Position numbers and translations under genes: made by a program. The notes below the pieces were generated by a model. That model did no database searches. It saw only the letters and a list, made by a program, of their open reading frames with translations, and was not told where the DNA came from. A DNA stretch of 55,624 nucleotides from a virus, in the IMG/VR virus record IMGVR_UViG_3300006162_000016, positions 1-55,624 of that record. One strand, written 5' to 3'. This document shows positions 2,311 to 54,933 of this stretch, piece after piece (the first letter of the stretch is position 1; every line of letters begins with the position of its first letter).

Positions 2311-3957
2311 ATGCCTATTGATACCGTCATTGTGTTAAGTCCCTACCATCCGGCGAATGAGAATAGCCATAGAAACGGTAGCGGCACATATACCTATAAT
2401 CCGGCAATCCCTACGCCTATCTTTTCTTTGGGCTGGGAGTTAGAGGCTAACCATAGCGCGACAAGAGTACCCGCCGGAGTACAGACAATCAGTGACGGAA
2501 GTGTAAACGGTGACGGTACCGAGTATGTAGTATCGCCCGCCGTCACACGTTCGCCGCGCTTCGTCTTAGGTCTTTTGAAAGACTTGGTACACGCTCCAAA
2601 ATTGAATACTGATAAATCGTGTGGGTTCCATGTGCATATGAGTATTCAAAATGCAAGCCTTCCGCGCTTGCGTAACTGGGCTATTGCAACGGAAGCACTA
2701 GCCAAGGACATAGAAGACATAGCCTTTAAAGCCGTGCCGGATGCGCGGCAATCAAATAGTTATTGTAGACGGATACAAGAGATAACGGCGGGCACACGTT
2801 TTGAGGCCACAAAGTACAATAACTCAAGGCGGTATCATTGGCTAAACACCGTTGAAATCTTCCGGCCTAGTGGTATCCGCACGTTAGAGGTACGCTTGCT
2901 AGGAAATACCCATAGATGGAAGTATCTTTTATCATGGGTTACATTCTCGCTACTGTTAGGCCGTGAGGGTTGGAAGGTAGCACATAGACCCTTTGAAAGC
3001 CGCCGAGCTTCCGTTAAGATGTTGACGGAAGTATTAGAGGCCATAATTGCCGACGTAAAGCCGCTAGATAAAAGGTCTGAGCCTATACCAGCATGGGTCT
3101 ATAGTCAATTGAAAAGTTTAGGTATTGAATTCAGCGCGTTTGAAAGGCCGTTGATTGCTCTAGCCAATACAGAGGCCGAGCTTGCCGGACGGTTAAAGAA
3201 ATTCTATTCAGACAATCAAGCTACCGAGGAAAATAATAGTAGTGATGACGATGACTCTTGTCCTTGTGGATGCGGTGAGGATGGTAGGTGTCAATCACAA
3301 TGCCATGATGACGGAGACTGCGATAGTAACGATTGTACCTACTGTCATTCTGACGGTAACTGCGGGGGTTCGCCTGACTGTTACGAGTGTGTGCGAAGTA
3401 GACATGAGGATGACGAATACTGCGGGGGTGATCGTTGCCGAGTCTGTGAAAGAAGTCAGCGCGGGCCATGGGCTGTCAGTGAGGACGAAGACGAAGAGAC
3501 TACAGAGGCCGCGCCGTCCGTTGCTACCTCGTCAAACGTGACGATACACACTAGCAATGTGTTACCGTCAGACCGTGCCGGAGTTAGCGGAGTGCTTACC
3601 GCCGAGTCAATGCGGGCCGCCGTCGAGACGTTGCGGGCTCAAAGTGTAGCAGGGCCGGAAGTACAAGAGGCCATGACTACAATGATAAGGGATAGCGTGC
3701 TCTATGGTACTCACAATCCGGCTAGAGTGTGTATTGACGAAGCTAGTACCGTGCGCGTCAATGTTGAACCATTGAACATTGAAGGCCGGACATGGATAGT
3801 AGGAGAGACTAGGACGGGCCGCATAGTGACAAGCGGAATAGATGATCCGGCGAACTATGCGCCGGACATGGAGCAGTTAGCTAACGGCATGATGACGCAA
3901 GACGAGCAGATACAAAGTATGGATAGGTCAACATTCTATAATGGGGGTGATCGTTAA
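2311..3957 (+). CDS. Amidoligase-family enzyme with Cys-rich insert, 548 aa
   Basis: Residues about 38-245 match the Amidoligase_2 family (glutamine-synthetase-like fold, ATP-dependent COOH-NH2 ligase): GWELEAN (41-47), DGS (62-64), GTEYVVSP (69-76), CGFHVHMS (104-111) and TLEVRLLGNT near 190. Residues about 303-386 are an Asp/Gly-rich segment with 14 cysteines, likely metal-binding and unusual for the family. The C-terminal part (390-548) is of unknown fold. The next gene encodes a class II glutamine amidotransferase, a known pairing in phage and bacterial amidoligase operons, where ammonia from glutamine or peptide-like bonds to a carboxylate are proposed. The substrate is unknown; a protein tag, a wall peptide or a metabolite are all possible. 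Confidence 0.8.
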   Translation: MPIDTVIVLSPYHPANENSHRNGSGTYTYNPAIPTPIFSLGWELEANHSATRVPAGVQTISDGSVNGDGTEYVVSPAVTRSPRFVLGLLKDLVHAPKLNTDKSCGFHVHMSIQNASLPRLRNWAIATEALAKDIEDIAFKAVPDARQSNSYCRRIQEITAGTRFEATKYNNSRRYHWLNTVEIFRPSGIRTLEVRLLGNTHRWKYLLSWVTFSLLLGREGWKVAHRPFESRRASVKMLTEVLEAIIADVKPLDKRSEPIPAWVYSQLKSLGIEFSAFERPLIALANTEAELAGRLKKFYSDNQATEENNSSDDDDSCPCGCGEDGRCQSQCHDDGDCDSNDCTYCHSDGNCGGSPDCYECVRSRHEDDEYCGGDRCRVCERSQRGPWAVSEDEDEETTEAAPSVATSSNVTIHTSNVLPSDRAGVSGVLTAESMRAAVETLRAQSVAGPEVQEAMTTMIRDSVLYGTHNPARVCIDEASTVRVNVEPLNIEGRTWIVGETRTGRIVTSGIDDPANYAPDMEQLANGMMTQDEQIQSMDRSTFYNGGDR

Positions 3958-3958
3958 C

Positions 3959-4882
3959 ATGTGCGGATTATTCGCCGGAGTAGGTAAGCTGTCAAGTAAC
4001 AGGATGATTGCTCTAGGGTCTATGAATGAGGATAGAGGTACCGATAGCGTAGGTATTGCCTACGTCTCTAATAATGAGGTACGCATTGCCAAGGTAGCGG
4101 ATAGGCCATGTGTGGCATTGAATACCACACTACGCAAGGAAGTAACCGAGGCCGCCGTATCTGGTATGTTTATCGGTCACACGCGACAAGCTACACAAGG
4201 TGAGGTGACAAGTGCTAACGCTCATCCGTTTTTAGATGACGGTATAGCGTTCGCGCACAATGGGATAATTATAAATGATGAGGATTTCGGCAAGTATGCC
4301 GTTGACTCTCAGAGCCTTATACATGGAATCAAGGCTAAAGACTTTAGCAAGTATGAGGGATGTATTGCTCTTGTGTGGATTGAAGGCGGCAAGCTGAAGG
4401 CGTACCGTTGCGGCAATCCTCTATACAGAGGCCGTCATAACGGCGGCACATACTTAGCGAGTGAGGCCGAGCAGTTAAAAGCAATCGGCTGTACTCATGT
4501 CCGGCAATTGGCGGAAGGTATGATCTATACTTTCCATGATGCCACACGCTTAACGAATGAGCGCGTACCTAAGAATAAATCATACTCCTATACGGCGGGC
4601 TATGCGTCAACGGGTCTAGGGTCTTCCCTTGCGGATTATGATTACGGATACAAAAGGCCGGAGTATAAGCTAGACGCGCCGAGACTTACAGGCCGCACAC
4701 TGTTAGACAAGGAAGACTTTAGCACATGGAAGGATGAGCGCGACAAGGCGCACGCGACTACAGACTATTGCGACATGTGCGGGGGGAAGAGTGAGCTATC
4801 AGAGGGTTACTGCTTAGACTGTATCATGTGGATGAAAGACATGGAGACGAAAGACGTACCGCCCGCGCTTGAGGTTAGATAA
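3959..4882 (+). CDS. Class II glutamine amidotransferase, 307 aa
   Basis: N-terminal nucleophile hydrolase fold that releases ammonia from glutamine. The start at 3959 is chosen because Cys2 must become the free N-terminal nucleophile; a start at 3941 would bury it. Visible motifs: MCGLFAG, RGTDSVG, GHTRQAT, NAHPF and the oxyanion-hole AHNG. Residues about 277-292 hold a C-x2-C...C-x2-C zinc knuckle. There is no synthase domain, so the ammonia probably goes to a separate partner, most simply the amidoligase encoded just upstream. Confidence 0.88.
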   Translation: MCGLFAGVGKLSSNRMIALGSMNEDRGTDSVGIAYVSNNEVRIAKVADRPCVALNTTLRKEVTEAAVSGMFIGHTRQATQGEVTSANAHPFLDDGIAFAHNGIIINDEDFGKYAVDSQSLIHGIKAKDFSKYEGCIALVWIEGGKLKAYRCGNPLYRGRHNGGTYLASEAEQLKAIGCTHVRQLAEGMIYTFHDATRLTNERVPKNKSYSYTAGYASTGLGSSLADYDYGYKRPEYKLDAPRLTGRTLLDKEDFSTWKDERDKAHATTDYCDMCGGKSELSEGYCLDCIMWMKDMETKDVPPALEVR

Positions 4883-7999: not shown

Positions 8000-8514
8000 A
8001 ACTTCGATATCAGTTAGGACTACTCATCGTCGGGATACTGGGATGCACGCTGATACTTCAGCGCTGTAACAAACCTTTACCTATCCCGAAAGGACCAGCA
8101 CAAATCTCGTATCAAAATGATACGATTGTGATCAAGCAGAAAGGTAAGCCGGATATCAAAGAGTTTCAACCTGATCCTAAGAGCACAGTCATCACGACTG
8201 ATGATAAAGGGCAAGTAACTGTCAAAGTTCGACAGTTTGGTGTTGGGACTGACTTAGGAGTGGGTATCGGGCTCTCAGACCGCGCTAGAGTGGCGCTGGA
8301 TGACCGCTTTGCCTACTTTAAGCGCTTCGGCGCCAATGCCGGCCTTGGGTTCAGTCTGGATAAGAATGACTACAAGAAGGGCCATTTGCTTGACATTGTG
8401 GACCCTTACGTGGGTGCCAGCGTCGTCCCGTTCGTTGGGATGCCAAATACGTCAATAGTTACAGCGTACACTGTAAGTAAACATGCGTTCATCTTTGTGA
8501 GGGTTCGATTCTAA
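7996..8514 (+). CDS. Predicted membrane-anchored or lipoprotein, 172 aa
   Basis: The N-terminus (residues about 5-21) is hydrophobic and ends in ILGC, a possible lipobox. The C-terminal half alternates hydrophobic and polar residues (FGVGTDLGVGIGL, AGLGFSL, YVGASVVPFVGM, FIFVRVRF), suggesting a beta-barrel or beta-sheet domain. It could be an outer-membrane or spanin-like protein. Overlaps rtcB by one base (TAATG). Confidence 0.5.
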   Translation: MKLRYQLGLLIVGILGCTLILQRCNKPLPIPKGPAQISYQNDTIVIKQKGKPDIKEFQPDPKSTVITTDDKGQVTVKVRQFGVGTDLGVGIGLSDRARVALDDRFAYFKRFGANAGLGFSLDKNDYKKGHLLDIVDPYVGASVVPFVGMPNTSIVTAYTVSKHAFIFVRVRF

Positions 8515-9692
8515 TGCCTATTCAAACCGTTGTCGAAACGCCACACGTCCCAGTGAAGGTCTGGTCACAGGATGTGGAAGCTGAGGCTTTAAAACAGCTT
8601 GAGAACACCGCCCGTTTACCGTTCGTCTTTAAACATGTAGCGGCAATGCCGGATGTTCATGTAGGACGAGGCGCGACAATTGGCTCAGTCATTGCTACCA
8701 AAGGTGCAGTGATTCCAGCGGCAGTGGGTGTTGATATCGGATGTGGTATGATGGCTGTGAAGACAAACTTAATCGCCGCACAAGTTGCGGAGAAGATTGC
8801 GGAGATTAGGCATAGCATCGAGAGGTCTATCCCAGTAGGCTTCAATGCCAATAAATCACTCAGTCAAGAAGTCCAGAATTGGACTGGATGGGTTGATGGA
8901 TGGATTGTTGAAGCTCATCCGGTGGCTGTCATTCAAAAGAGTGCAGCTCAGCTCGGTTCACTTGGTGGCGGGAATCATTTCATTGAAATCTGTTTGGACA
9001 AAGAAAATAATGTGTGGATCATGTTGCACTCAGGCTCACGCAACATTGGTAAGGTGTTGGCGGAGAAACACATTGATAAAGCCAAAGGTCTGATGAAGCA
9101 GATGTTTATCGGCTTGCCTGATCGCGACTTGGCGTACTTTGCACAAGGAACGCCTGAATTCAACGCATATACGTCCGATGTGCGTTGGGCTCAGTCGTAT
9201 GCCATGTTCAACCGTCAAGAGATGATGAGACGGATTCTTAAAGACCTTGGCTTCATGTTCAATGGCGGGATGCCAATAGAACCAGTATTCTCAGTAAACT
9301 GTCATCACAATTACTTGGAGTGGGAGCATCATTATGGAGAGAACGTTATTGTCACGCGCAAAGGAGCAGTACGCGCTAGAGAAGGAGACATGGGAATTAT
9401 TCCGGGCTCTATGGGCACACGGTCCTACATCGTGCGAGGCCGAGGTAATCCTGAGTCATTCAATTCCTGTTCACATGGGGCAGGTCGTCGTATGTCGAGG
9501 ACGAAGGCAAGGGCTACATTCACTGTGGAGGATTTGGCAAAACAAACAGAAGGGGTCGAATGTCGCAAAGATATTGGGATTGTGGATGAGATTCCGGGCG
9601 CGTATAAAGACATTGATGTGGTGATGGCAAATCAAACAGACTTGGTTGAAATCGTAGCTGAGCTCAAGCAAATTTGTTGCATCAAAGGATAG
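8514..9692 (+). CDS. rtcB: RtcB-type RNA ligase, 392 aa
   Basis: Mn/GTP-dependent ligase that joins RNA 2',3'-cyclic-phosphate (or 3'-phosphate) and 5'-OH ends, known for tRNA splicing and repair. Near full length for the family. Motifs in order: DVHVGRGATIG (47-57), VGVDIGCGM (metal-binding Asp74 and Cys77), LGGGNHFIE, HSGSRNIG, NCHHNY, GSMGTRSYIV, CSHGAGRRMSR containing the guanylylated histidine at about residue 320, and DEIPGAYKDI. All key residues appear intact. It may mend host- or phage-cleaved tRNAs; the rearranged tRNA at 48940 is another possible substrate. Confidence 0.95.
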   Translation: MPIQTVVETPHVPVKVWSQDVEAEALKQLENTARLPFVFKHVAAMPDVHVGRGATIGSVIATKGAVIPAAVGVDIGCGMMAVKTNLIAAQVAEKIAEIRHSIERSIPVGFNANKSLSQEVQNWTGWVDGWIVEAHPVAVIQKSAAQLGSLGGGNHFIEICLDKENNVWIMLHSGSRNIGKVLAEKHIDKAKGLMKQMFIGLPDRDLAYFAQGTPEFNAYTSDVRWAQSYAMFNRQEMMRRILKDLGFMFNGGMPIEPVFSVNCHHNYLEWEHHYGENVIVTRKGAVRAREGDMGIIPGSMGTRSYIVRGRGNPESFNSCSHGAGRRMSRTKARATFTVEDLAKQTEGVECRKDIGIVDEIPGAYKDIDVVMANQTDLVEIVAELKQICCIKG

Positions 9693-47688: not shown

Positions 47689-48633
47689 TTAGGCCGCACT
47701 CGTACCAATAACTTCGATGGCACGCTGCGAATCCAGAACAGGATACACCGCATAAGCTTTCCAGCCGATGCTGCCGTTCAGGTTCAACGGATCAGCCACG
47801 CCTGAATCACCCGGTTGGTGCACGATCTTCTGAATCCCTTGGTTGGCCACATCGACCGCACCGAAGGACTCTTTCCCGAACACCCAGCTATGATACGTGA
47901 CGGCAGACGACGCGCCAGTACCAGTCAGGATATTCTGCGATTCTTGGAAACGAATGTTGTACAACTTTCCAAGTTCGCCAGCCAAGGCCATATTATGCAC
48001 CTTGTCGATGCTGATATACTTATTCAGCTCGATCCAGCCACTCGCAGCGCTATCGCTCTGCAGGTCGAAGCTGGTGTTGGGGTGAACCAAACCGTGATAC
48101 GTTCCATCTTCAAACGGCATAACCGCGAGAGCACGGAGATGCGCCGAAGCCCGGCGGAAGTCAACGCCAGCAGCAACGACCGACACAGTGGCTTCAGAGA
48201 CAGCCGACCCAGTGTACTGAATGGTCATGTTACCGGACAGAGAGTTCCGACAGATGGTGTCCAACGACAACCCGGCCTGATATCCAAGAACGTCATGGAT
48301 AGCTTCCGTGATATTGTCATACGCTTCCAACATGAGTCTGTCAGAATACGAAACGAACGCTCCATACTGCAGAGGCGTCGCAAGGATTTTTGTGGACTGC
48401 CAAACCAATCCGTTCGGGTTTGCACCTTCGCCTAGCGGCGTGGTGACTGCAGCCTGATTGACAGGGCGCAGGAACTGAATTTGCGTACCGGAAGCTTTCG
48501 GAAGGGTGCGCTTTTCCGCGTTCTCTTGGAAGAACAAAGAGAACATCAAGCGGGTTAACAGTTTGCGGTCATAGAAAATGGCCGACGCGTCATTAAGCCC
48601 ACTCGTTGAGGTGATATTTACATTGAGAGACAT
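47689..48633 (-). CDS. Major capsid protein (N4-gp56 family), 314 aa
   Basis: Matches the N4-gp56 family of HK97-fold capsid proteins: FYDRKLLTRLMFSLFFQENA, KRTLPKASGTQIQFLRP, TTPLGEGANPNG, FVSYSDRLMLEAYDNI and the C-terminal FGKESFGAVDV. Length and position after scaffold fit. AAAGG ribosome site. It has its own structured 230-base leader. Confidence 0.9.
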   Translation of the reverse strand: MSLNVNITSTSGLNDASAIFYDRKLLTRLMFSLFFQENAEKRTLPKASGTQIQFLRPVNQAAVTTPLGEGANPNGLVWQSTKILATPLQYGAFVSYSDRLMLEAYDNITEAIHDVLGYQAGLSLDTICRNSLSGNMTIQYTGSAVSEATVSVVAAGVDFRRASAHLRALAVMPFEDGTYHGLVHPNTSFDLQSDSAASGWIELNKYISIDKVHNMALAGELGKLYNIRFQESQNILTGTGASSAVTYHSWVFGKESFGAVDVANQGIQKIVHQPGDSGVADPLNLNGSIGWKAYAVYPVLDSQRAIEVIGTSAA

Positions 48634-48864
48634 AGTAATTACCTTTGAGAGTTTGATATGTGTGAGCGCGATATCTCATGCACAATTGTACAAGTGCCAA
48701 GGTTAGTGACCGTTTAGCCGTCACCGCATCCGTTCGTTCTGGGGCGTCCACACTGCACGCTTGTCCGTTACTACTGGACACATGCCTTATCTCGTACTAA
48801 CGAGGGGCCTGCTGGTTACCAATCAGATTGTCCTAAACACCGGGTCTGTTTGGTAACTAAAAAT
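48634..48864 (-). promoter_or_regulatory. Structured leader of the capsid gene
   Basis: No gene is seen. On the minus strand an 8-bp inverted repeat (GTTACCAA...TTGGTAAC, about 48820-48860) is followed by hairpins CTCGT/ACGAG, GTCC/GGAC and GTGAC/GTCAC. No clear promoter is visible. The region lies between tRNA-fMet and the capsid gene and may be a processed 5' untranslated region. Confidence 0.45.
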
Positions 48865-48939
48865 TGGTTGCAGAGGACGGAATCGAACCGTCTACCTTCG
48901 GCTTATGAGGCCGACGAGCTACCAATGCTCCACTCCGCG
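48865..48939 (-). tRNA. tRNA with initiator (fMet) features, anticodon CAT
   Basis: A full cloverleaf of 75 bases with encoded CCA. Acceptor CGCGGAG pairs with CTCTGCA except at C1-A72, the mismatch that marks bacterial initiator tRNAs. The D stem has A11-U24, also an initiator feature. Anticodon arm TCGGC-CTCATAA-GCCGA (anticodon at 48905-48907) has three G-C pairs next to the loop, although the innermost is C-G and not G-C. T arm GACGG-TTCGATT-CCGTC. Much of it is close to E. coli tRNA-fMet. It directly abuts the rearranged tRNA at 48940. Confidence 0.93.
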
Positions 48940-49016
48940 AAAGCTGCTGCTCTACCCACTGAGCTACTCCCCCGATGGAGGAGGTGAGAATCGAACTCAC
49001 GACCTAGCTGCTAAAA
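48940..49016 (-). tRNA. Circularly permuted tRNA, probable anticodon UUU (Lys)
   Basis: Read 5' to 3' on the minus strand, the 3' half comes first: anticodon-side TTTTAGCAGCT (49016-49006), variable AGGTC, T arm GTGAG-TTCGATT-CTCAC (49000-48984), acceptor CTCCTCC (48983-48977) and A73. After two bases (48975-48974) comes the 5' half: acceptor GGGGGAG (48973-48967), TA, D arm GCTC-AGTGGGTA-GAGC, then AGCAGCTTT ending at 48940. Acceptor strands pair at 7 of 7 positions (one G-U). The AGCAGCT segments pair with each other apart from a central A-A. Joined through the T runs, the loop reads C-U-UUU-A-G. No linear tRNA can be drawn for either half. A pseudogene made by rearrangement is the alternative. 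Confidence 0.7.
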
Positions 49017-49021
49017 TTGTG

Positions 49022-49041
49022 CCGGGGATTTTAACCCCCGG
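49022..49041 (-). terminator. Hairpin between scaffold gene and tRNA locus
   Basis: On the minus strand CCGGGG pairs with CCCCGG over an eight-base loop, followed by CACAATTTT. It lies 14 bases after the scaffold stop. It may be a terminator, or a processing stem marking the 5' end of the permuted tRNA precursor, because the T run belongs to the tRNA 3' half. Confidence 0.6.
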
Positions 49042-49054
49042 TCTTCGTTATTAC

Positions 49055-50032
49055 TTAGCTGTTCTGCTGCTGAGCAATGAGCCACTCACGCTGTTCATTC
49101 AAAGACATTTTCTTAAATGCCGCTAAATGATCAGAGGGGATTCTGCCGGCGCCTTTACCTGCACTGGCCACCGTTCCACCTTTGGCTTCTTCAGAGAGCG
49201 CGGCTTGCGCTTCTTTGATTGCTTCTTCTCTTGCAGCTTTGGCAATGGCGTCTTTTTCTTTCGCCAACATGTCTGCCAACATACTTTTCATTTCTGATTC
49301 TTTATAGACTTTCTCAGCCGAAACTACCGGAGCAGCTTGTGCGGCAGAAGCTGGATTCTCTTGCAAAGCCAGTTCATACAACGCATCGAGCACTTCAGCA
49401 GCAGGCTTCGTAAAGTCAATTCGAGGATCACCCTGCCCAGTGGGTCCCATTGCTATCTTCACAATACTAGGATACAGTCTCTTCCACTCAGGATAATTCT
49501 CAGTGTCTTGCTCACGCCGCATTCGTTCAAGCGCGGTATCTTTAGCTTTCGCTTCGGACGCCAGCGCATCTAAACGTTCTTGGAGCTCGGCAGTCGCAGA
49601 CTCTTTTTCATTCTCAATGATCTGTGCCAACTCTTCGGGACTCTTCTTGGACAACTCTTTGTAGTCCATTGGAGTCTTGGACATCTTGGCCAACAACTTA
49701 TAAGTCTTTTCCTGTTCAGCTCGGATAGCTGCCATCTCATCCCGCAGCTTCTTATTTTCCTGACTGACTCTCGTATTCCACTTGCGGAGCTCGGCTGGAT
49801 CATTCGGCTCTTTCTTTTCAGGTTTGACTTCTGGCTTCTTGTCATCAGCCTTCTGTTCAGGAGCTTTCTGTTCTGGCGCCTTCTCTTCTTTCTTCTCTGG
49901 TGTCTCAGGAGCCTTCTCTTCAGACTTCTGTTCCGGGGCCTTGGCCGCCGCTTCCTTCTCCGCTGTTTCTAAAGCTTCTGCTCTTTGCGCGATTGATGCT
50001 GGGCTTACAACACTCATTCCTTGCTTATCCAT
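49055..50032 (-). CDS. Putative scaffolding protein, 325 aa
   Basis: Extremely Ala/Glu/Lys-rich first 130 residues (low-complexity PEQK repeats), then long coiled helices with QENKKLRDEMAAIRAEQEKT and SKKSPEELAQIIENEKESAT, and a basic C-terminus. This composition, immediately before the capsid gene and after the portal, is characteristic of phage scaffolds. GGGAG ribosome site. Confidence 0.75.
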   Translation of the reverse strand: MDKQGMSVVSPASIAQRAEALETAEKEAAAKAPEQKSEEKAPETPEKKEEKAPEQKAPEQKADDKKPEVKPEKKEPNDPAELRKWNTRVSQENKKLRDEMAAIRAEQEKTYKLLAKMSKTPMDYKELSKKSPEELAQIIENEKESATAELQERLDALASEAKAKDTALERMRREQDTENYPEWKRLYPSIVKIAMGPTGQGDPRIDFTKPAAEVLDALYELALQENPASAAQAAPVVSAEKVYKESEMKSMLADMLAKEKDAIAKAAREEAIKEAQAALSEEAKGGTVASAGKGAGRIPSDHLAAFKKMSLNEQREWLIAQQQNS

Positions 50033-52895: not shown

Positions 52896-53237
52896 TTAGA
52901 TTTCCTCTTGATTTCGTTTTAAATAATCAATTCCACACTGAAGAATATGCTGAGAATCTTTAGCGAAACCAATCATTTTATTACAGGGACTACAAATTAA
53001 ACCACGCACTCGACCTGTTTTGTGGTCATGATCTACACAAGGCGTTTTTATAAATTCAGTACTACAAATAGCACACTTATTATTTTGAACGCTTAAAAGA
53101 ATTTTTTCTTGCGTAAGAGTTAAACCATACTTCTTAAGTGATGTTTCTCTAACGGAATTTGGATTTCGCTTTCGCCATTCCCTCATGTAATGCTGCTGAT
53201 AACCGGGATGTTTTTCGCGCCATTCTCTATTTGCCAT
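52896..53237 (-). CDS. Endonuclease VII-like HNH nuclease, 113 aa (copy 4)
   Basis: NKCAICSTEF, PCVDHDHKTGRVRG and LICSPCNKMIGFAKD give the zinc knuckle and active site; the N-terminus is basic (REWREKHPGYQQHYMREWRK). Wedged between terminase and portal with two-base and zero-base gaps, as expected of a homing insertion. Confidence 0.87.
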   Translation of the reverse strand: MANREWREKHPGYQQHYMREWRKRNPNSVRETSLKKYGLTLTQEKILLSVQNNKCAICSTEFIKTPCVDHDHKTGRVRGLICSPCNKMIGFAKDSQHILQCGIDYLKRNQEEI

Positions 53238-54596
53238 TTATATCTCATCAACTGTCAGGTCTGTGAAACTCTTATAAGGCATTGGTTCGTTTGTTTCTCT
53301 TTCAGCTTTACTTAACGTAGGTTTTTTGTAAAGGTCTAACGGGTCAAATCCTGTGTTTCTTTTTCCTTTGCGTGATACACCACCCACACGCACAAGGTCG
53401 TAGACTCCGGCAAGATTCTTAGAGAAACCGTACCGTAGACCGTCAGGGCTATGGCTGCAGTCATGAGCAGGTTTAGAAGAGCCATTCTTATCATAACAAT
53501 ACCCTTCCATTTCACGTATCAAATTCTCACAGCAATCGAATATTTTGATCCGATTTTCTTTGAGCAGTTTCGTGATTCGTTGAATTCCCACATCCACAGA
53601 GTTATCTGCCGGCTCCATTCGGAGCTTACAGACGGTCCTGACTTCGTTCATGACGGCCACTGCCGCCGGGTCATAAATCGTGTAGGTGAACTTTTCGTCT
53701 TTGAGGAATCCGCCTATCTTTTCAGCCAATTGGCGATTTTTGTAAAATTCCTTGTAGACATAAAACTCTTTGCCTTCTGGATCAAAAGTGATTGCCAGAA
53801 TCGCTGTCGGGTCCGACCAACCATAGTCGAGTCCAGACCATCGTGGCCAGTGTGCAGGAATTTCAAAAGGCTCAATAATGTGATCTATCCGGTTAAATTC
53901 TGGATAAATCAGACCTTCAATCTTAACAAATCGACCTTCAAAATCACGCTGAAATACGCTTTCATTCATCGTGGCCTTCGCCCGATCATACACTGAGCGG
54001 TCGATATACGGATTGTCGGCCATCGAGAAGTTCACATAGAGAAGCCAAGGTAGTTGATTTCTCAACTGGATTAAGCGTAAATTCATCCATGATGACGGGC
54101 TGCCGTATGGAGTCGTCGTCATCAAGAGCCGGCCTTTGGGCTCACCAGCTTTCTGAACCAAGCGTTGACAAACCTTGTCATACGTGGTTTCATTACAGAG
54201 CGCAGCTTCATCCATCCAACATCTTCGGGCAGTCAAACCTTCGACTGCATCCGGCTTGTCTGCAGAACGAATCCAAACAACACCGCCATTATTCAACTGG
54301 ATTATGCTATCTTGTTTCTTGTAGGTACCCAGACCCTTTGGCCAGTAGGTGAACAGGGTACGTAGTGTAGACTGATTCAAAACCCGGTACGTCGGGCCTA
54401 GAACCAAATAGTCAGCTTTGACGCCATTTTTAATATCGTTTGCAATTTCGCGGATCAACCAAATGGCGCCTACCGTGGTCTTACCACCTCGGTGGCCGGC
54501 AACAACTAGAATCTGTTCGTGCAGGGAATCCAACACCTGCTGCTGATGTCTATGTGGCGTGAAGACGATTTGCTTCTGGTTTTCGTTATCGGCCAT
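53238..54596 (-). CDS. terL: Terminase large subunit, 452 aa
   Basis: DNA-packaging motor. ATPase: VVAGHRGGKTT with Walker A at residues 34-40, and CWMDEAAL (Walker B with catalytic Glu). Coupling motif LLMTTTP. RNase H-like nuclease: GLDYGWSDPTAIL, YDPAAVAVMNE and HSPDGLRYGF provide the acidic residues. No small-subunit gene is obvious nearby. Confidence 0.93.
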   Translation of the reverse strand: MADNENQKQIVFTPHRHQQQVLDSLHEQILVVAGHRGGKTTVGAIWLIREIANDIKNGVKADYLVLGPTYRVLNQSTLRTLFTYWPKGLGTYKKQDSIIQLNNGGVVWIRSADKPDAVEGLTARRCWMDEAALCNETTYDKVCQRLVQKAGEPKGRLLMTTTPYGSPSSWMNLRLIQLRNQLPWLLYVNFSMADNPYIDRSVYDRAKATMNESVFQRDFEGRFVKIEGLIYPEFNRIDHIIEPFEIPAHWPRWSGLDYGWSDPTAILAITFDPEGKEFYVYKEFYKNRQLAEKIGGFLKDEKFTYTIYDPAAVAVMNEVRTVCKLRMEPADNSVDVGIQRITKLLKENRIKIFDCCENLIREMEGYCYDKNGSSKPAHDCSHSPDGLRYGFSKNLAGVYDLVRVGGVSRKGKRNTGFDPLDLYKKPTLSKAERETNEPMPYKSFTDLTVDEI

Positions 54597-54933
54597 TGTG
54601 TTTCCCTACGTATTCAATAGCTGATTTTAAAATTTTTGGATTTTCTTTGAACTGGCCTAATCCATGGTTGCAGTTCTCGCAAAGCAGCCCTCTCACTTTT
54701 CCAGTGAGATGGTTATGATCGACATGACACGATCTGCTTTGTTCAACAATCTCAATACCACAAATCGCACATAATCCATGCTGATTTTGAAAAATCTGAT
54801 GAACCTCTTCGGGGGTTGTATTATACCGTAACCGAAGAATCCGCGTGTAGACCGCCAATTTCAAACGATCTTTATGTTTTTGGTAGTATCGTTGATAACA
54901 GGCTTTCGCTTTTGCTTTATCTGCGTAAGCCAT
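54586..54933 (-). CDS. Endonuclease VII-like HNH nuclease, 115 aa (copy 5)
   Basis: LCAICGIEIV, HVDHNHLTGKVRG and LLCENCNHGLGQFKE carry the motif, with Asn in the third active-site position where the other copies have Asp-His. Overlaps terL by 11 bases. A basic N-terminal helix (KAKACYQRYYQKHKDRLK) is shared in style with copies 1 and 4. Confidence 0.85.
   Translation of the reverse strand: MAYADKAKAKACYQRYYQKHKDRLKLAVYTRILRLRYNTTPEEVHQIFQNQHGLCAICGIEIVEQSRSCHVDHNHLTGKVRGLLCENCNHGLGQFKENPKILKSAIEYVGKHNGR

What the first reader, a model, noticed from the sequence alone, without database searches (positions are those of the whole stretch)
48865..48939. Phage-encoded initiator tRNA
C1-A72 mismatch, A11-U24 and a G-C-rich anticodon stem mark it as an initiator, unlike the elongator Met or Ile2 tRNAs usually carried by phages. 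The innermost anticodon-stem pair is C-G where bacterial initiators have G-C, which might change IF3 or P-site selection. It could raise initiation capacity or favour phage mRNAs, including leaderless ones.
Basis: partly seen in the sequence, partly recalled or inferred. Interest (0 to 1): 0.72.

Follow-up and report, generated by a model that had tools for sequence, protein, structure and literature searches.

The report
Phage initiator tRNA with swapped stem pair
A virus of bacteria carries its own copy of the tRNA that starts proteins, with one base pair reversed exactly where a known bacterial toxin family cuts that tRNA, and right beside a small RNA that imitates a tRNA; the same kind of change recurs in many other phages but was almost absent from the bacterial genomes sampled, so it can be tested as a defence trick.

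Summary
Confirmed: 48865-48939 (-) is an intact initiator-type tRNA (C1-A72, A11-U24, encoded CCA). It aligns at 65 of 77 columns with an E. coli initiator and 43 of 77 with E. coli CAT tRNA-Ile. The innermost anticodon-stem pair is C31-G39. Phage initiator tRNAs as such are known.

New points. (1) The 31-39 change recurs in phages: 14 of 80 viral loci with the initiator core lack G31-C39. In 299 Pseudomonadota genomes 206 have G31-C39 and one has another pair, the genome chosen for it. (2) Pairs 29:41 and 30:40, which touch 16S rRNA, are kept here, and enteric VapC cuts tRNA-fMet at A38/C39 (papers). I favour a nuclease-insensitive spare initiator; insensitivity is untested. (3) Abutting the tRNA is a conserved, covarying, circularly permuted tRNA-like RNA (48940-49012), the tRNA-like module of YrlA Y RNAs without the Ro60 stem. 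(4) Both lie between the putative scaffold gene and the capsid gene. The phage encodes RtcB and an RNA ligase. The leaderless-mRNA idea has no support.

The parts
48865..48939 (-). initiator-type tRNA-Met(CAU) with C1-A72, A11-U24, C31-G39 and encoded CCA
48940..49012 (-). circularly permuted tRNA-like (YrlA-module-like) RNA: closing stem AGC-A-GCU/AGC-A-GCU, T-arm, hairpin in place of the acceptor stem, D-arm; its 3' end abuts the tRNA
   Evidence: RF02553 37.7 bits over model 25-83 of 114, below the gathering score of 69; 8 of 22 pairs changed on both sides, 132 of 132 cells paired, 0 of 500 shuffles as high; model search
49013..49041 (-). conserved CACAAUUUU (49013-49021) preceded by a G+C-rich hairpin (49022-49041)
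   Evidence: CACAATTTT invariant in 7 of 7 aligned copies; hairpin read from sequence
48634..48864 (-). conserved structured leader between the tRNA and the capsid gene
   Evidence: 12 of 44 predicted pairs changed on both sides, 0 of 500 shuffles as high, in 11 sequences; no Rfam family
47689..48633 (-). major capsid protein gene
   Evidence: phrog_1357 major head protein, 5.6e-47
49055..50032 (-). gene upstream of the tRNA cluster, scaffold position (function inferred from place only)
   Evidence: no PHROG match; conserved in relatives
8514..9692 (+). RtcB RNA ligase gene
   Evidence: PF01139 430.7 bits
19637..20551 (+). RNA ligase gene
   Evidence: PF09414 57.4 bits
20553..21038 (+). HAD_SAK_2 gene (RNA-repair-associated HAD family), next to the ligase
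   Evidence: PF18143 92 bits

Best explanation
The phage carries a spare initiator tRNA that is made with its late structural transcript and released by host tRNA processing. It keeps what the host needs to use it as an initiator: the unpaired 1-72 for formylation, and G29-C41 and G30-C40 for the ribosomal P site. Its innermost stem pair is reversed to C31-G39, next to the bond (38/39) that VapC-type toxins cut in host tRNA-fMet. The most likely role is to keep initiation going when a host anticodon nuclease destroys the host initiator during infection, with the phage's own RNA ligases as a second line. Shown: the tRNA, its features, its place in the late gene block, the recurrent and pairing-preserving change in phages, the repair genes. 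Inferred: co-transcription, processing, formylation, use in initiation, resistance to a nuclease, and that the host has such a nuclease (the host is unknown).
For: Initiator features and best match. In the capsid-gene family 17 of 20 loci keep an unpaired 1-72 (C-A or A-A); of 19 tRNAs parsed, 17 keep G30-C40, while position 39 is not C in 12 (tallied by hand). Viral initiator cores: 14 of 80 not G31-C39. Pseudomonadota: 206 of 299 genomes G31-C39 against 1 of 299 otherwise, that one being the genome selected for it; Fisher p about 1e-8. Changed 30-40: 24 stretches, scan complete. The exact window-type core occurs in 3 stretches of the 84,980-species genome collection; one of these sits in front of a phage major head protein gene with a tail sheath gene further on, and another lies in an aberrant tRNA array with a phage-type RNA ligase. 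VapC cut at A38/C39: PMC4105405, passages. Ribosome contacts at 29:41 and 30:40: PMC4611024, passages. Phage tRNAs altered at anticodon-nuclease sites: PMC10264068, Results section read. RNA repair genes.
Against: No nuclease assay exists for a C31-G39 initiator in what I saw; VapC specificity at 39 is not established here. The host, and whether it has an initiator-cutting toxin, is unknown. 66 of 80 viral initiator cores keep G31-C39, so the change is not general. Seven of 19 tRNAs in this phage family have C39. A bacterial genome not chosen for it (G354) has two copies with U31-G39; its context was not examined. PMC10264068 reports that enterobacterial phages generally avoid tRNA-fMet, and describes the anticodon itself as the VapC target, which differs from PMC4105405. 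RtcB is missing from one near relative of similar length that carries the same RNA element (G001).
Confidence: 0.42

Rival explanations
1. Punctuation and dosage: the tRNA mainly marks a cleavage point. RNase P and the 3' processing enzymes cut at the tRNA, separating the upstream gene from the capsid message, while the structured leader protects the capsid message. Initiation capacity is a by-product and the anticodon stem drifts.
For: The tRNA sits between the same two genes in most relatives, followed by a conserved covarying leader. The UUU/CGC junction and encoded CCA are kept in many copies. Several relatives have decayed or odd tRNAs (L007, L009, L017, L019). In other phages an initiator lies 13-34 nt before a head maturation protease gene (L169, L188), and in L124 about 135 nt before a head gene.
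Against: Any tRNA would do for punctuation, yet the unpaired 1-72 is kept in 17 of 20 loci. The 31-39 change keeps standard pairing in 80 of 80 viral loci, which simple decay would not give.
Confidence: 0.3
2. Altered initiation: C31-G39 changes IF3 proofreading or start-codon choice and favours phage messages.
For: The three G-C pairs are described as an initiator hallmark, and a triple mutant of them is inactive in initiation (PMC4611024 and PMC10486304, passages).
Against: The two pairs named as ribosome contacts are intact. The phage uses ATG starts in 50 of 53 ORFs checked and Shine-Dalgarno-like motifs in 33 of 53.
Confidence: 0.1
3. Neutral variation: a host-derived initiator drifting in a phage, with no special role for 31-39.
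For: 29-41 and 31-39 both vary in the family; mycoplasma initiators with variant stem pairs are known (recalled, no call).
Against: Viral contigs show at least 120 stretches changed at 31-39 but 24 changed at 30-40. The changes are all compensated and mostly one type, C-G, in 52 flank clusters. The difference from 30-40 could still reflect constraint at 30-40 rather than selection at 31-39.
Confidence: 0.18

Closest known systems
Phage- or prophage-encoded tRNA-fMet (Caulobacter phage CcrSC; S. meliloti phiLM21-like prophages; Erwinia jumbo phage pEa_SNUABM_47)
   Same: initiator-type CAU tRNA in a phage genome (annotation note; passages in PMC12429752, PMC7760394)
   Different: CcrSC keeps G31-C39; neither the permuted tRNA-like neighbour nor the capsid-leader position is described in the passages seen
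Bacterial initiator tRNA (E. coli)
   Same: 65 of 77 aligned columns, C1-A72, A11-U24, G29-C41, G30-C40
   Different: C31-G39 instead of G31-C39; shorter D-loop; G4-U69
YrlA-type Y RNA (Rfam RF02553), also found in phages
   Same: permuted tRNA-like module, model positions 25-83
   Different: no long Ro60-type stem, below the gathering score, no Ro60 (TROVE) gene in 3 of 3 records checked that carry the short element
Phage tRNAs altered at anticodon-nuclease sites (eLife 2023, PMC10264068)
   Same: change at or beside a known toxin cut site; that paper also points to phage tRNA ligases, and RNA ligase genes are in this genome
   Different: here the initiator, which that paper reports phages generally avoid, and a stem pair rather than a loop base

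Membership tests
bacterial initiator tRNA (tRNA-fMet) | unpaired 1-72 | tested here: met
   C1-A72
bacterial initiator tRNA (tRNA-fMet) | A11-U24 | tested here: met
bacterial initiator tRNA (tRNA-fMet) | three consecutive G-C pairs 29-41, 30-40, 31-39 | tested here: inconclusive
   G29-C41 and G30-C40 as in bacteria; third pair present but reversed, C31-G39
bacterial initiator tRNA (tRNA-fMet) | closer to an initiator than to another CAU tRNA | tested here: met
   65 of 77 columns with E. coli initiator, 43 of 77 with E. coli CAT tRNA-Ile; E. coli elongator Met not fetched and no isotype covariance models run
bacterial initiator tRNA (tRNA-fMet) | formylated and used in initiation | not testable with these tools
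   needs biochemistry
YrlA Y RNA (RF02553) | permuted tRNA-like module | tested here: met
   37.7 bits over 25-83; L007 copy 41.2 bits; covariation
YrlA Y RNA (RF02553) | long stem joining the two ends (Ro60 binding) | tested here: not met
   only a 7-position stem with one mismatch; a phage YrlA-type RNA matches 1-114
YrlA Y RNA (RF02553) | score at or above Rfam's gathering score | tested here: not met
   37.7 against 69; the phage YrlA-type L023 is also below it, 52.7
YrlA Y RNA (RF02553) | Ro60 (TROVE) gene in the same genome | tested here: not met
   0 of 1 and 0 of 2 relatives; 6 of 15 records with the long-stem type have one
permuted tRNA gene (algal or archaeal type) | mature CCA-ended tRNA made after the anticodon halves are joined | tested here: inconclusive
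   acceptor strands joined by only a 3-4 nt loop in all copies, which argues against a mature tRNA; joining not testable
VapC-resistant phage tRNA | not cut by the toxin | not testable with these tools
   needs an in vitro cleavage assay

The most novel reading that the evidence does not exclude
Phage initiator tRNAs form a class in which the pair beside the initiator-toxin cut site is repeatedly reversed while the ribosome contacts and formylation signals are kept, so that phages start their proteins with a toxin-proof initiator. In this phage family it is made together with a stemless, Y-RNA-like tRNA mimic that serves the same RNA-repair or tRNA-defence programme.
Probability: 0.27. Interest if true: 0.82.

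Novelty: new variant of a known kind. Interest (0 to 1): 0.6.

Why it matters
Why phages carry tRNAs is an old open question. One recent view is that they replace host tRNAs cut by defence nucleases, and initiators were reported as avoided. A recurrent, pairing-preserving swap at exactly the 31-39 pair makes a sharp prediction that a single in vitro cleavage experiment can test. The permuted tRNA-like RNA shows that the tRNA-mimic half of Y RNAs exists in phages without the Ro60 half, which separates the two functions.

Tried and rejected
Elongator Met or Ile2: rejected on features and identity. Two decayed tRNAs upstream instead of one folded element: rejected, because the two halves covary as one structure. 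Ro60-binding Y RNA proper: rejected, no long stem and no TROVE gene. Functional permuted tRNA ligated by RtcB: not supported, because the acceptor side is a closed hairpin with a 3-4 nt loop and RtcB is absent from relative G001. Integrase or attachment-site origin of the viral G31-C39 set: I guessed it and it failed, 0 of 10 neighbouring ORFs tested are integrases (10 of the 80 loci, chosen for short tRNA-ORF distances). Leaderless-mRNA link: no support. Permuted tRNAs in phages in print: one search listing of 5 papers seen, none read. I found no paper on the 31-39 change, in searches (listings and some passages); this is not proof of absence, since most subscription papers are not held.

One search used ranges that were too short and was replaced. 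One search used a pattern one base off and found nothing (0 of 2). The parser misread the decayed L007 tRNA and some phage tRNAs with a shifted acceptor, so those rows were judged by eye. The E. coli elongator Met was not obtained: queries gave 1 and 0 records. The G31-C39 count was not run for the second phylum. L104, L105, L110 and L113, fetched later, were read by eye only and are not in the counts.

Full report
Observation. The window holds one tRNA gene by ARAGORN, tRNA-Met(CAT) at 48865-48939, minus strand, scored 61.2 bits by Rfam. Its acceptor stem has C1 opposite A72 and an encoded CCA, its D-stem has A11-U24, and its anticodon stem reads U27-A43, C28-G42, G29-C41, G30-C40, C31-G39. 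The best matches in E. coli genomes are tRNA-Met genes at 84.4% over 75 of 75 bases, with a median of four places per genome; the one fetched has C1-A72 and GGG/CCC. Global alignment gives 65 of 77 columns with that initiator and 43 of 77 with an E. coli CAT tRNA-Ile. The initiator call therefore stands. No isotype covariance models were run.

Genome and relatives. The window is one IMG/VR virus record of 55,624 bases. The capsid protein is a distant relative of that of Bacillus phage Page and its kin (34% identity); in one of these, poppyseed, the capsid gene follows the previous gene after 22 bases and no tRNA is annotated there. Twenty capsid-gene relatives were fetched. A tRNA lies between the upstream gene and the capsid gene in 19 of the 20; L021 has none. 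The unpaired 1-72 (C-A or A-A) is kept in 17 of the 20; L020 has U-A, L007's copy is decayed, and L021 lacks a tRNA. L017 has anticodon CCU with A1 opposite A72. Of 19 tRNAs parsed, 17 keep G30-C40 and 12 have a base other than C at 39 (tallied by hand). Seven with C39 count against a simple rule.

The pair 31-39 in phages and bacteria. A core pattern with 29-41 and 31-39 free was scanned in viral contigs; the scan stopped at its limit and 80 loci were held. Of these, 66 have G31-C39 and 14 another pair, 9 of them C-G. The matching patterns in 299 Pseudomonadota genomes gave G31-C39 in 206 and another pair in one, which is Achromobacter anxifer, the genome that had been found by searching for C31-G39. 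A second phylum gave 2 of 112: the genome chosen for it and one independent genome with two U31-G39 copies. A scan for changed 31-39 alone again hit its limit at 120 stretches. In the 80 loci held, all form standard pairs: 62 C-G, 8 U-G, 6 A-U, 4 U-A. They fall into 52 clusters by flanking DNA. The same kind of scan for changed 30-40 ended at 24 stretches. The exact window-type core occurs in three contigs of the 84,980-species collection. One of these lies just before a major head protein gene with a tail sheath gene further on, and another lies in a tRNA array with a phage-type RNA ligase nearby; for the third only a PHROG of unknown function was found. Among the eleven other phage records whose initiator-like tRNAs I fetched, five depart from G31-C39 (L088, L114, L115, L116, L117).

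Reading of the change. A review states that pairs 29:41 and 30:40 of the initiator touch G1338 and A1339 of 16S rRNA and that the lack of a 1-72 pair is the main formylation signal (PMC4611024, passages seen). A study states that VapC of Shigella and Salmonella cuts tRNA-fMet between A38 and C39 (PMC4105405, passages seen). The window's tRNA keeps both contact pairs and the 1-72 mismatch and changes the base on the 3' side of that cut. A 2023 paper proposes that phage tRNAs carry changes at anticodon-nuclease sites and says enterobacterial phages generally avoid tRNA-fMet (PMC10264068, Results read; it describes the target as the anticodon itself). The phage encodes RtcB (430.7 bits), an RNA ligase (57.4 bits) and a HAD_SAK_2 protein next to the ligase (92 bits). 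I infer a nuclease-insensitive spare initiator. Resistance, formylation and use in initiation are not shown, and the host is unknown.

The permuted tRNA-like element. Directly 5' of the tRNA, 48940-49012, lies a second structured RNA: T-arm, then a 7-pair hairpin in place of the acceptor stem, then D-arm, closed by AGC-A-GCU pairing with AGC-A-GCU where the anticodon stem would be. Rfam's YrlA model matches only its tRNA-like module (37.7 bits, positions 25-83 of 114), while a phage YrlA-type RNA, L023, matches over 1-114 at 52.7 bits. The element occurs in the window and 7 of the 20 relatives (L002-L007, L014). On seven aligned copies, six distinct, 132 of 132 cells pair and 8 of 22 pairs have changes on both sides, matched by 0 of 500 shuffles and by no slid version. 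The single-sequence fold is only mildly better than shuffles (z -1.64). In L003, L006 and L014 it is separated from the tRNA by spacer or an inserted reading frame, so it is a unit of its own. The model built from it scores 105-114 bits on these eight, and 33 to 56 bits for the YrlA-type RNAs of other phages among the 40 sources searched. None of three records with the short element has a Ro60 gene, against 6 of 15 with the YrlA type. It is therefore not filed as YrlA; it resembles the tRNA-mimic half of one. Its role is inferred only: most likely a tRNA mimic for RNA-processing enzymes, or a 3' cap on the upstream message after RNase P cuts.

The leader. The ~230 bases between tRNA and capsid gene are conserved and covary (12 of 44 pairs changed on both sides in 11 sequences, 0 of 500 shuffles as high), with no Rfam match. 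The structure was predicted on the same alignment, which favours it, and the window's own fold is not better than shuffles (z -0.27).

Identity right; the unusual pair right. P-site change not favoured, and the leaderless idea unsupported: 33 of 53 ORFs checked have a Shine-Dalgarno-like motif within range and 50 start with ATG (no chance expectation was computed).

What is known and new. Phage tRNA-fMet genes are annotated or reported (passages in PMC12429752, PMC10460002, PMC7760394). Phage Y RNAs are mentioned in print (PMC12282133, passages). New here, as far as my searches go, are the recurrence and form of the 31-39 change in phage initiators, the stemless permuted element fused to an initiator, and the conserved block in front of the capsid gene.

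Noticed in passing
48634-48864: Conserved, covarying structured leader of the capsid gene with repeated CCC...GGAYAA hairpins and no Rfam family; a divergent version is seen by eye in L016-L019 and L021.
   Followed up: partly
L124:894-2167 (genome contig of a Deltaproteobacteria MAG): C31-G39 initiator about 135 nt upstream of a major head protein gene, with a tail sheath gene further on: a similar layout in an apparently unrelated phage.
   Followed up: partly
L139, L166 (UvsX-like); L169, L188 (head maturation protease); L146 (head-tail adaptor): In other phages an initiator tRNA lies 11-34 nt before a phage gene.
   Followed up: no
L006, L010, L012, L020, L113: Endonuclease-like reading frames appear inserted at different points of the tRNA/leader/capsid block, including inside the capsid gene in L020 and L113 (read by eye; no family search).
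   Followed up: no
52896-53237 and 54586-54933: Two endonuclease VII-like genes flank the terminase gene.
   Followed up: no
2311-4882: Amidoligase-like and class-II glutamine amidotransferase-like genes side by side.
   Followed up: no
L056:4104-4192; L066:7324-7398; L035:8093-8480: ARAGORN reports a CTA-anticodon tRNA, a TTA-anticodon (stop) tRNA and a permuted tmRNA in other phage contigs with YrlA-type RNAs.
   Followed up: no
L022:3047-3131 and 3334-3419: Two YrlA-type RNAs in one phage contig that also has a TROVE gene.
   Followed up: no
G354:C3:327288-327567 (L258): Two neighbouring initiator genes with U31-G39 in a bacterial genome: a counter-example to the bacterial rule.
   Followed up: no
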